Notes under the pieces: generated by a model
The model's database searches: none
What the model was told of the DNA's origin: nothing
What the model saw: only the letters and a program-made list of their open reading frames with translations
Part shown: positions 14,859 through 18,671 of the stretch, piece after piece
Layout of the letters: each line of letters starts with the position of its first letter
Position numbering within the stretch: position 1 is the first letter of the stretch
From: Methanobacteriota archaeon
Lineage (GTDB): Archaea; Halobacteriota; Methanomicrobia; Methanomicrobiales; Methanoculleaceae
Direction: 5' to 3'
Length of the DNA: 64,000 nt
Assembly: GCA_016841955.1 (NCBI GenBank)
Contig: JAENYE010000001.1
Span: forward strand, 322,025 to 386,024
Translations under genes and position numbers: made by a program

Positions 14859-15092
14859 ATTACCGTACTATCGTGCCTCACCCTACAAAATGGTGATTGT
14901 CCGGCAGAGGCGCAGCTGGCGGAACGTAGCGGAAGGCGGCGGGGGAGCGAGTCCGGCAGGAATTTTTCCATGGCCCACATCGAGTGTGCGGGACTGCGTA
15001 CCCGGATGACAAACAGCGGTCCGTATAGAATGAGATCTGTTATAACCGAACAGAACGAAAACGTAATGACCGAATAATCCGGGGGTATTACC

Positions 15093-15362
15093 ATTTCCGA
15101 TACAGCGCAATTCACCGTATATACACTGGAATTCTGCCCGAATTGCGAAGTACTCAAAGAGTTCCTGGCCTCCAGGGGCGTTCACTTCGTCGAGTGCGAC
15201 ATGGCGTCCGCCGAGGGGCTGACGGAACTCCGCATGAACGGCGTATTCGTCCAGGAAGCGCCGGTGCTGCAGAAGGGCGACGCATTCTATACGTCCGGTG
15301 ATCTCTTTAGCGGGGGCGCGTTCCAGGAAGACCTTGTCACCGACCTGATCGCGGAGGCATGA
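15093..15362 (+). CDS. Glutaredoxin/NrdH-like thiol protein (apparent ATT start)
   Basis: Reads as an 89-residue thioredoxin-fold protein with the active site CPNC (residues 15-18) after FTVYTLEF. EAPVLQKGD contains the cis-proline region and FQEDLVTDLIAEA ends it. The frame is closed upstream by TAA at 15075-15077, and no ATG, GTG or TTG lies between that stop and the CPNC motif. The best start is ATT at 15093, seven bases after GGGGGT. An in-frame ATG at 15066 is followed only by ACC GAA TAA. The stop overlaps the next start as ATGA. The partner is evidently the NrdD-like reductase, matching methanogen class III reductases that take electrons from a redoxin. Family call good; exact start uncertain. 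Confidence 0.75.
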   Translation: MSDTAQFTVYTLEFCPNCEVLKEFLASRGVHFVECDMASAEGLTELRMNGVFVQEAPVLQKGDAFYTSGDLFSGGAFQEDLVTDLIAEA

Positions 15363-17554
15363 GGTTGACGCGCAAGTCGACACAGGCGACTTTATTCGGG
15401 GAGTTCGTCCCCACCTTCCCGAAAGTCCGGACCTCGCGGGGTTACCTCCTCGACTGGAACCGGAATCGGATCGTCCGGCAGATCGTGGAGGAGAGCCGCC
15501 TCGTGGAGGTTTTCTACGGCTACGAGGGGGCCGACGAGGAGACGGCAAAGGAGATCGCCCGGCGGGTCGAGAGGAAGATCCAGATGCTCGGGTTGCAGTC
15601 GCTCTCCGGCCCCCTGATCCGCGAGATCGTCAACATGACGCTCCTTGAGCGCGGGCTTACGTCGTATCGCAACGTCTGCACCCGGGTGGGAACCCCGGTC
15701 TTCGACGCACACCTCATCGACGTGGGGAGGGGGTTCGAGGCCCACGACAACGCCAACCTCCAGGAGAACGCCGAGACCTCGCACAAGAAGAAGGCGGACA
15801 AGATCAGCAAGGAGCAGTATCTCCTGCAGCTCCCTCCGGACCTTGCAGACCACCACCTCCACGGCGATCTCCACATCCACGACCTGGAGTACTTCGGTAC
15901 CCGCCCGTTTTGCCAGGATTGGGACCTGCGCTACTTCTTTTACTACGGCCTGATGCCCGACGGCAACGGGACGAAAGCGTCGGTCGCCGGCCCCGCGAAG
16001 AGGGCCGAGGTGGCGGTCCTCCATGCGGTCAAGGCGCTCGGCTCCGCCCAGACGAACTTCGCCGGCGGCCAGGGCTACTACAACTTCCTCACGTTCATGG
16101 CACCCTTCTTCGAGGGGATGGACTACGAGGAGATCAAGCAGTTGATGCAGATGTTCGTCTACGAGATGACCCAGATGATGGTCGCCCGTGGCGGCCAGGT
16201 GGTCTTCTCGTCGGTCCAGCTCTCCCCGGGCGTCCCCACCCTCTGGAAGGATAAACCCTGCGTCTACCGCGGCAAGGTCTGGGACGGGAACCAGGCGCCG
16301 CTCCGGACCTATAGCGAGTTCGAGCGGGAGGTCCGGCTCCTCTTCAAGGCGCTGATGGAGGTGATGCTCGAGGGGGACTACTGGGGCAAGCCCTTCTCCT
16401 TCCCGAAACCCGAGATCAGCATCGAGCCGGACTTCCTTACCGAAAACGAGGAGTTCAACAGGCAGCACCCGGACATCCCGACTTACCAGGATCTCTACCT
16501 GATGACCTTTGAACTCGCGTCCAAGTACGGCACCCCCTACTACGACAACCAGATCCCCGGCTACCGGGGCGCCGGCGAGGGGATATCGTGCTATCAATGT
16601 TGCGCATACCAATTTTCGTCGCTCGCCGACGAGGACGACGAGTTCGAGGATAAGCTCTACTTCCGGGAGGGGAAGCATTTCTCGATGGGTTCCTGGCAGG
16701 TGATGTCCATCAACTGTCCGCGGGCGGCGTACAAGGCGGAAGGCGACCAGGAACGGCTCTTTGCCGAGTTGAAGTCGTTCATGGACATCGCCGTCGACCT
16801 CTACCGGATCAAACGCCGTTGGATGTCCCTGATCCGGACGAACGGGCGGATGCCGTTTGCGATGCAGCGCCCGAAGGATCCGAACACCGGCGAGCGCGGT
16901 GCGGTTGCCGTGGACCTCGAAGGGCTCGTCTACACCATCGGCGTGGTCGGCGTCAACGAGATGGTACAGCACTTCACCGGCCACCAGCTCCACGAGTCGA
17001 AGGAGGCGTTCCGTCTCGCCGTCCGGGCCATGACCGAACTCGAGATGTACGCCCGCGAACTCTCGAAGAAACACAACATGACGATCGCCCTCGCCCGCAC
17101 CCCGGCGGAGACGACCGGCCAGCGGTTTGCGGTCGCCGACCTCCTCGACGAGCGGTTCCGGGACCACGCGCTCAAGGTCATCAAGGGCGACGCCGACCAG
17201 GCGCTCGATATGCTCGGCACGACGCTCGACCTCCCCATCTACTACACCAACGGGACCCACGTCACCCCGGGAGCCCCGGTCCCGCTCACGAAACGGATCG
17301 AGATCGAACATATCTTCTTCCCCATCGTGGACGGCGGGAACATCTTCCACGTATGGCTCGGGGAAGCGCGCCCCGATCCCCGGGGGTTGATGGAGATGGC
17401 GATGAACCTCTGCCGGACGACCCAGATTGGCTACTTCGCTTTCACCCGGGACCTGACGGTCTCCCTCAAGGAGTACCGGGAGTTCAAACCGGCGCACCCG
17501 GATAAGGCGACGACGGCCGGGGCATCTCCGGCGGCGGACCGGGCAGACGCCTGA
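15359..17554 (+). CDS. nrdD: NrdD-like anaerobic ribonucleotide reductase lacking the glycyl-radical domain
   Basis: Class III ribonucleoside-triphosphate reductase large chain, 731 residues. An ATP-cone lies at about 22-105, then the ten-stranded barrel. The finger-loop cysteines appear as SCYQCCAYQF (Cys411, 414, 415). The protein follows the family up to IGYFAFTRDLTV (about residue 701), then ends in a 30-residue Ala/Pro/Lys-rich tail. The zinc-binding Cys4 motif and the glycyl-radical motif (R-x-x-G-Y) that normally follow are absent, and neither other forward frame encodes them. The redoxin gene overlaps its start. No NrdG activase gene is nearby. It could depend on a radical domain in trans, use another radical source, or be a divergent paralogue. 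Confidence 0.88.
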   Translation: MRLTRKSTQATLFGEFVPTFPKVRTSRGYLLDWNRNRIVRQIVEESRLVEVFYGYEGADEETAKEIARRVERKIQMLGLQSLSGPLIREIVNMTLLERGLTSYRNVCTRVGTPVFDAHLIDVGRGFEAHDNANLQENAETSHKKKADKISKEQYLLQLPPDLADHHLHGDLHIHDLEYFGTRPFCQDWDLRYFFYYGLMPDGNGTKASVAGPAKRAEVAVLHAVKALGSAQTNFAGGQGYYNFLTFMAPFFEGMDYEEIKQLMQMFVYEMTQMMVARGGQVVFSSVQLSPGVPTLWKDKPCVYRGKVWDGNQAPLRTYSEFEREVRLLFKALMEVMLEGDYWGKPFSFPKPEISIEPDFLTENEEFNRQHPDIPTYQDLYLMTFELASKYGTPYYDNQIPGYRGAGEGISCYQCCAYQFSSLADEDDEFEDKLYFREGKHFSMGSWQVMSINCPRAAYKAEGDQERLFAELKSFMDIAVDLYRIKRRWMSLIRTNGRMPFAMQRPKDPNTGERGAVAVDLEGLVYTIGVVGVNEMVQHFTGHQLHESKEAFRLAVRAMTELEMYARELSKKHNMTIALARTPAETTGQRFAVADLLDERFRDHALKVIKGDADQALDMLGTTLDLPIYYTNGTHVTPGAPVPLTKRIEIEHIFFPIVDGGNIFHVWLGEARPDPRGLMEMAMNLCRTTQIGYFAFTRDLTVSLKEYREFKPAHPDKATTAGASPAADRADA

Positions 17555-17639: not shown

Positions 17640-18671
17640 ATGATCGATCTGACGACGCCACTTCTTGCCATCGATGTCGGCAGGGGCACCCAGGACATCC
17701 TGGTCTACGAGCCCGGCCGGTCGATCGAGAACAGCATCAAACTGGTCCTCCCCTCCCCGACCGTGGTGGTGGCGGAGAAGGTCCGGCAGGCAACCCGGGC
17801 CGGGCTCCCGATCTTCCTGGACGGGTACCTGATGGGCGGCGGCACGAACACCGGCGCCATACGGGAGCACCTGGCCGCAGGCCTCCCCGTCTACGCCACG
17901 CCGGGAGCCGCCGGAACCCTCCACGACGATCTCGCGCGGGTGCGGGCGATGGGTGTTGAGATCCGGGCCGTCCCCCCAGAGGACGCGGTGACCATCCGTA
18001 CCACCGATTACATGGCGCCGGAACTGCAGAAAGCACTCTCCCTCTTCGGCGTGGATTACCCGAAGAATGTCGCGATTGCAGTCCAGGACCACGGCTACTC
18101 CCCGCACCGCAGCAACCGCATCCACCGGTTCGAACTGATGCGGGAGCAGCTGGACGCCGGCGACTGGGACCTCCTCTCGCTCGCTAGCGACCCCCCGCTC
18201 GCCGATATGACCCGGATGCAGGCCGTCCGGCGTCAGGTACCGGGCGCGCTCGTCACCGATACCGGGCCGGTCGCCCTCATCGGGGCGCTCTGCGATCCTC
18301 TCGTGCGGCGCATGGCTGATACAGGGGTTATCCTCGTCAACGTCGGGAACGGGCACACCCTCTGCTTCACCCTGAAAGGAAGGGAGATCTACGGCCTCTT
18401 CGAGCATCATACCGGCGCACTCGACCCCGCAAAACTGCAGCACTACATCTGGCGGCTCGCCGACGGCACGCTGACCTCGGAGGAGATCTTCGACGACGGC
18501 GGCCACGGGGCGGCGGTCAGAAAGCCCCTCGTCACCGATGCCGTGGTCGTCACGGGCCCGAACCGGCTCCGGCTGCTGCCGAAGGCATACCAGGCGGCAC
18601 CCTTCGGGGACATGATGCTCTCGGGGTGCTTCGGGCTCGCGTACCTCTGGAAGAGGTTTAGAGAAGGGTGA
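17640..18671 (+). CDS. DUF1786 family protein (ASKHA-like N-terminus)
   Basis: Conserved archaeal protein of 343 residues. The opening PLLAIDVGRGTQDILVYE looks like the phosphate-1 loop of the actin/hexokinase/Hsp70 fold. A second glycine-rich loop, VGNGHTLCF, lies at about residue 240. Databases often label this family as a putative pyruvate formate-lyase activating enzyme, but there is no radical-SAM CxxxCxxC motif and only three cysteines, so I do not accept that name. I start at ATG 17640 (GTGAGG upstream); ATG 17610 is in frame. It follows the radical-domain-less NrdD, which may be coincidence. Function unknown. Confidence 0.75.
   Translation: MIDLTTPLLAIDVGRGTQDILVYEPGRSIENSIKLVLPSPTVVVAEKVRQATRAGLPIFLDGYLMGGGTNTGAIREHLAAGLPVYATPGAAGTLHDDLARVRAMGVEIRAVPPEDAVTIRTTDYMAPELQKALSLFGVDYPKNVAIAVQDHGYSPHRSNRIHRFELMREQLDAGDWDLLSLASDPPLADMTRMQAVRRQVPGALVTDTGPVALIGALCDPLVRRMADTGVILVNVGNGHTLCFTLKGREIYGLFEHHTGALDPAKLQHYIWRLADGTLTSEEIFDDGGHGAAVRKPLVTDAVVVTGPNRLRLLPKAYQAAPFGDMMLSGCFGLAYLWKRFREG

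What the first reader, a model, noticed from the sequence alone, without database searches (positions are those of the whole stretch)
15359..17554. NrdD-like ribonucleotide reductase without zinc and glycyl-radical domain
The protein follows class III reductases through the ATP-cone, the barrel and the finger-loop cysteines, up to the family segment ending DLTV. It then ends in a short tail lacking CxxC-CxxC and the R-x-x-G-Y radical motif. No frameshift copy of the missing domain lies downstream. It is overlapped by a redoxin gene and is not obviously decaying. Either the radical is supplied in trans, as YfiD-type proteins do for pyruvate formate-lyase, or another radical source such as adenosylcobalamin is used, or it is a regulatory paralogue.
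Basis: partly seen in the sequence, partly recalled or inferred. Interest (0 to 1): 0.7.

Follow-up and report, generated by a model that had tools for sequence, protein, structure and literature searches.

The report
DNA-building enzyme split in two genes
A methanogen's oxygen-sensitive enzyme for making DNA building blocks lacks its radical-carrying end because that end is a separate small protein encoded 340 kb away, an arrangement kept across nearly the whole order Methanomicrobiales and not described in any paper I could read.

Summary
The 731-aa protein is a class III ribonucleotide reductase (NrdD, 'QCCA' NrdD3-type finger loop) that stops at the end of the barrel. The genome holds no complete NrdD. 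The missing part is not lost: a free-standing 120-aa protein on the same contig, 340 kb away, carries a four-cysteine zinc site and the RVTGY glycyl-radical motif. Of 150 genomes of the order, about 118 have both pieces and 24 (one genus) have neither; the 24 also lack the activase NrdG. The few mismatches are mostly incomplete assemblies. Both genes are under strong purifying selection. Truncated cores form one clade nested among fused enzymes, so fused is ancestral. Free-standing domains share a compact zinc motif absent from all fused domains (38/38 against 0/26), and the cores have mostly lost the matching barrel-end cysteine (6/41 against 26/26). In Methanococcoides and Alkanophagales a related free-standing domain coexists with a complete NrdD, as YfiD does with pyruvate formate-lyase; the split may have arisen when such a spare part became obligatory. 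Best explanation: a two-subunit class III reductase; NrdG activates the small protein, which supplies the radical to the core in trans. Interaction and activity are inferred, not shown.

The parts
15359..17554 (+). nrdD core: class III ribonucleotide reductase catalytic chain without the zinc/glycyl-radical domain, 731 aa
   Evidence: Pfam NRDD 1-510/562, TIGR02487 above cut-off; 76-82% identical across the order; dN/dS 0.08-0.10
15422..15664 (+). ATP-cone-like N-terminal region (residues 22-102), weak
   Evidence: PF03477 20.2 bits, below the curated cut-off of 25.8
15746..17461 (+). catalytic barrel region (residues 130-701)
   Evidence: Pfam NRDD and TIGR02487 match limits
16586..16615 (+). 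finger loop SCYQCCAYQF (residues 410-419), QCCA motif as described for NrdD3
   Evidence: invariant in 25 truncated cores, same in fused relatives; motif class from PMC9669993
17444..17464 (+). last barrel segment TRDLTVS; the S stands where fused enzymes have an invariant Cys, a likely zinc ligand
   Evidence: C in 26/26 fused, 6/41 truncated
17465..17551 (+). 29-aa C-terminal tail replacing the radical domain; possible docking segment
   Evidence: tail of 19-38 aa, mostly 26-29, in all truncated cores examined; docking is inference
15087..15362 (+). NrdH/glutaredoxin-like redoxin (CPNC), overlapping the core by 4 bases; likely non-standard ATT start
   Evidence: PF00462 weak; homologue next to the core in 26/26 sampled loci; homologue also upstream of fused nrdD

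Best explanation
It is the catalytic subunit of a two-subunit (split) class III ribonucleotide reductase. The glycyl radical is made by the radical-SAM activase NrdG (encoded at G000:C2:51322-52011) on Gly95 of a separate 120-aa zinc protein (GRD, encoded at G000:C3:678517-678876). That protein docks into the barrel of the core, takes the place of the usual C-terminal domain and passes the radical to the finger-loop cysteine, which starts ribonucleotide reduction; the overlapping redoxin is the likely reductant. Shown: both halves, NrdG and the redoxin are present and conserved; the core, GRD and NrdG are co-distributed; their key residues are intact. Inferred: physical complex, radical transfer in trans, reductant.
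For: Only two NRDD matches in the genome, and they are complementary: 1-510 and 504-562. The GRD protein has S-R-[VI]-T-G-Y, two zinc modules and the WN..K.QELKDR end, constant length 120 aa, 63-87% identity to ours across the order. Distribution in 150 genomes: about 118 both, 24 neither (all one genus, which also lacks NrdG), 3 core only, 4-5 GRD only, nearly all of these in incomplete assemblies. NrdG is 37% identical to the NrdG encoded directly after fused nrdD in Methanosarcinaceae. dN/dS 0.08-0.10 (core) and 0.04-0.13 (GRD). Finger loop and barrel residues unchanged. The barrel-end Cys, invariant in fused enzymes, is mostly lost in cores, while the GRD carries its own C-x2-C-x4-C-x2-C site. 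The GRD gene sits in a conserved cluster dys-pyrF-GRD-cbiZ-RPA, next to pyrimidine-nucleotide and DNA-replication genes (gene names by sequence recognition). In ordinary NrdD the domain must flip out to meet NrdG (PMC12662201), so a detachable domain fits the known cycle.
Against: No experiment shows binding or activity. Core and GRD are not neighbours: 340 kb apart here, about 17 kb in the nearest case I noticed (G069). The co-loss is a single phylogenetic event, so its formal p-value overstates the evidence. A class II NrdJ is present, so the class III enzyme need not be essential. AlphaFold models were too poor to judge docking, and the GRD model had no significant PDB fold match.
Confidence: 0.88

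Rival explanations
1. The free-standing GRD is a YfiD-like repair part, and the core is an inactive or remnant reductase that it no longer serves.
For: Free-standing GRDs coexist with complete NrdD in Methanococcoides, one genome of another Methanosarcinaceae genus (g45), Alkanophagales and family f32.
Against: No complete NrdD to repair in this genome or in nearly all of the order; catalytic residues invariant, dN/dS about 0.1 and no long branch for the truncated clade.
Confidence: 0.04
2. The core uses another radical source, such as adenosylcobalamin, without the GRD.
For: A cbiZ gene (cobamide salvage) lies beside the GRD gene; the core lacks its own glycine.
Against: Finger loop and barrel are class III; nothing resembling a cobalamin-binding adaptation was seen; NrdG and GRD are conserved with the core; a separate NrdJ covers B12-dependent reduction.
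Confidence: 0.03
3. The two halves are joined after translation by protein trans-splicing (split intein), so the mature enzyme is a single ordinary chain.
For: Many relatives carry in-frame insertions, apparently inteins, inside the core.
Against: The core ends in only 19-38 aa after the barrel and the GRD begins with about 26 aa, too short for the two intein halves, and no intein C-terminal motif (HN followed by C/S/T) is seen.
Confidence: 0.01
4. The core is a regulatory paralogue that binds nucleotides but does not reduce them.
For: NrdJ is present as an alternative reductase.
Against: It is the only NRDD core, with invariant catalytic cysteines, next to a redoxin gene, and NrdG and GRD are retained with it.
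Confidence: 0.03

Closest known systems
Fused class III NrdD of Methanosarcinia (the lineage of the characterised M. barkeri enzyme, as I recall the literature)
   Same: Same barrel, finger loop, N-terminal region, upstream redoxin and NrdG family; the truncated clade is nested within this group
   Different: There the zinc/glycyl-radical domain is the C-terminus of the same chain, with one ligand-like Cys at the barrel end, and in the two Methanosarcinaceae loci read nrdG lies directly downstream
YfiD/GrcA and Y06I spare-part proteins of pyruvate formate-lyase (PMC8683613)
   Same: A small free-standing glycyl-radical domain that serves a radical enzyme in trans
   Different: YfiD repairs an oxygen-cleaved but otherwise complete enzyme; here no complete enzyme exists. 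The GRD is an NrdD-type zinc domain and has no Gly_radical (PF01228) match
Split class II reductase NrdJa/NrdJb (PMC9669993)
   Same: A ribonucleotide reductase divided into two chains, the small one carrying a zinc finger
   Different: Class II, adenosylcobalamin radical; NrdJb is not a glycyl-radical protein

Membership tests
Class III ribonucleotide reductase (NrdD) | NRDD barrel and class III finger loop | tested here: met
   PF13597 E 9.9e-135, TIGR02487 above cut-off, QCCA loop
Class III ribonucleotide reductase (NrdD) | C-terminal zinc/glycyl-radical domain on the same chain | tested here: not met
   Profile match stops at 510/562; the domain is a separate gene
Class III ribonucleotide reductase (NrdD) | Glycyl-radical motif and Cys4 zinc site present in the system | tested here: met
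   SRVTGY and C-x2-C-x4-C-x2-C in the 120-aa protein, conserved across the order
Class III ribonucleotide reductase (NrdD) | Radical-SAM activase NrdG in the genome | tested here: met
   TIGR02495 above cut-off; 37% identical to the NrdG beside fused nrdD in Methanosarcinaceae
Class III ribonucleotide reductase (NrdD) | NTP reduction with a glycyl radical | not testable with these tools
   needs EPR and enzyme assay
YfiD/GrcA spare-part proteins | Gly_radical domain of the PFL type (PF01228) | tested here: not met
   no PF01228 match in the genome; the GRD matches NRDD instead
YfiD/GrcA spare-part proteins | Coexists with a complete parent enzyme that it can repair | tested here: not met
   no complete NrdD in this genome; coexistence is met for the related GRD of Methanococcoides and Alkanophagales
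Adenosylcobalamin (class II) reductase | NrdJ-type sequence | tested here: not met
   the window protein is NRDD; NrdJ is a separate gene on contig C8

The most novel reading that the evidence does not exclude
An obligate two-subunit class III ribonucleotide reductase that arose when a free-standing spare-part glycyl-radical protein, still found beside complete NrdD in Methanococcoides and Alkanophagales, replaced the built-in domain in the ancestor of Methanomicrobiales; and those free-standing proteins are the first spare parts for a ribonucleotide reductase.
Probability: 0.55. Interest if true: 0.88.

Novelty: new variant of a known kind. Interest (0 to 1): 0.8.

Why it matters
In every class III reductase described in the papers I could read, the radical glycine is on the catalytic chain. 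Here a whole order of methanogens appears to keep it on a detachable subunit, in effect a class III counterpart of the class I radical subunit. It makes radical hand-over between glycine and thiyl directly testable with separable parts. It also bears on an explicit open question: PMC8683613 notes that only pyruvate formate-lyase spare parts are validated and speculates that others exist. Finally it bears on annotation, since the core looks truncated and the small protein can be mistaken for a fragment.

Tried and rejected
AlphaFold of the GRD (mean pLDDT 72, radical loop below 50) and of the core (pLDDT 56): alignments too shallow and too similar, so no structural claim is made. Foldseek of the GRD model against the PDB: no match below E 0.001, mostly zinc ribbons. 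The core model was not searched because it was too poor. PF01228 in the genome: none. Phage records: the annotated hits listed are NrdD genes; no clear split pair was seen, and unannotated ones were not examined. Trans-splicing, local frameshift remnant, adenosylcobalamin and regulatory-paralogue readings were considered and rejected as above. Literature searches for a split class III enzyme found none, but the two Wei et al. papers on NrdD2/NrdD3 and M. barkeri NrdD are not held, so an earlier remark cannot be excluded. One dN/dS script failed and was rerun.

Full report
Observation. The ORF at 15359-17554 is a class III ribonucleotide reductase core. Its profile match ends at position 510 of 562, just after the last barrel segment (TRDLTV); a short tail follows, without zinc cysteines or radical glycine. 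In an alignment with fused relatives it is collinear from the N-terminal ATP-cone-like region through the finger loop to TRDLTV. The finger loop reads SCYQCCAYQF; QCCA without the methionine is the motif PMC9669993 assigns to NrdD3.

Where the missing domain is. A six-frame search of the 2.43-Mb genome (99.5% complete) finds exactly two NRDD matches: the core, and positions 504-562 in a free-standing ORF on the same contig, G000:C3:678517-678876, minus strand, outside the window. The protein is 120 aa and includes YKCHTCHFVVDETPCPHCGE, CPLDHCDCHH and YCPLCGHAVCPECGSHDVVQISRVTGYLQDVAGWNAGKQQELKDRVRYSVA. Residues 63-117 match the end of NrdD in Pfam and NCBIfam; residues 27-62 form an additional zinc-ribbon-like module. 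There is no PFL-type Gly_radical protein.

Conservation. In 150 genomes of the order nearly every NRDD core ends at about position 510. One genome (G001) has in addition a divergent, nearly complete NrdD (positions 1-560, 569-aa frame). The GRD protein is found as a free-standing frame in the same genomes. The same 24 lack a close NrdG homologue (its list names most of them), while six of six tested keep a class II NrdJ. Fisher's p is 8e-20, but the loss is one event in the tree, so this shows a coordinated loss and not many independent ones. Eighteen GRDs from six families align without gaps; they are 63-87% identical to ours. Twenty-five cores are 76-82% identical to ours. Pairwise dN/dS is 0.08-0.10 for the core and 0.04-0.13 for the GRD. 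Neither gene is decaying.

Other parts. An NrdH/glutaredoxin-like redoxin with CPNC overlaps the core start by four bases; a homologue lies next to the core in 26 of 26 sampled loci and also upstream of fused nrdD. NrdG (TIGR02495 above cut-off) is at C2:51322-52011 with a CxxxCxxC motif and is 37% identical to the activase encoded directly after fused nrdD in a Methanosarcinaceae genome. The GRD gene lies in a cluster conserved through the order: deoxyhypusine synthase, pyrF, GRD, cbiZ, RPA-like, OB-fold protein (names by sequence recognition, not searched).

Origin. On a tree of cores the truncated ones are one clade (SH-aLRT 100) nested among fused enzymes, on a branch no longer than comparable ones: the fused state is ancestral and the domain was lost once. 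Outside the order the domain mostly sits in intact ORFs of about 760-840 aa. Four groups carry a free-standing GRD as well as complete NrdD: Methanococcoides (g59), one g45 genome, Alkanophagales (f23) and family f32. All 38 free-standing GRDs examined have C-x2-C-x4-C-x2-C-x2-H before SR[VI]TGY; none of 26 fused domains has it. On a 43-column tree the free-standing ones fall on one side of a branch with moderate support, 84/77. Fused enzymes have an invariant Cys right after the barrel (26/26), probably a zinc ligand; only 6 of 41 truncated cores keep it. The simplest reading is that a pre-existing free-standing GRD took over and freed the core from holding part of the zinc site. This is inference; with so few columns, a simple fission followed by motif change and spread cannot be excluded.

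Mechanism. In known NrdD the domain flips out to be activated by NrdG and returns to the barrel (PMC12662201). The split form would replace flipping by association. I infer: NrdG makes the radical on Gly95 of the small protein; the protein docks at the open end of the barrel, perhaps helped by the core's tail; the radical moves to the finger-loop cysteine; the redoxin re-reduces the active site. Docking and transfer are not shown, and structure prediction did not help.

Known or new. I found no description of a split class III reductase in the readable literature. The split class II NrdJa/NrdJb and the YfiD spare part are the nearest parallels. Key papers on methanogen NrdD were not available.

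Noticed in passing
window 15087-15362: The redoxin before the core has no ATG, GTG or TTG start in frame upstream of its CPNC motif; ATT at 15087 or 15093 is the likeliest start, so standard ORF callers miss or shift it.
   Followed up: partly
L254, L255, L257-L261 and many genomes: Cores of many close relatives are interrupted in frame by large insertions (frames of 1200-2000 aa), apparently inteins; the window's copy has none.
   Followed up: no
L166:3819-4163: A Methanosarcinaceae genome (G196) carries a free-standing GRD whose end diverges right after the glycine motif, as if frameshifted, beside a complete NrdD.
   Followed up: no
L171 and L173: Methanococcoides seepicolus has two different free-standing GRD genes.
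   Followed up: no
L025 and L262 (G034:C1): One relative has two core copies about 15 kb apart, one with a replaced or missing N-terminus (673-aa frame), so possibly without the ATP-cone-like region.
   Followed up: no
L094:2677-4386: G001 holds an additional, divergent, near-complete NrdD (569-aa frame) besides the split pair.
   Followed up: no
window 17640-18671: DUF1786 gene (Pfam name: putative pyruvate formate-lyase activating enzyme) directly after the core; hits in 9 of 26 sampled neighbourhoods, flanks limited.
   Followed up: no
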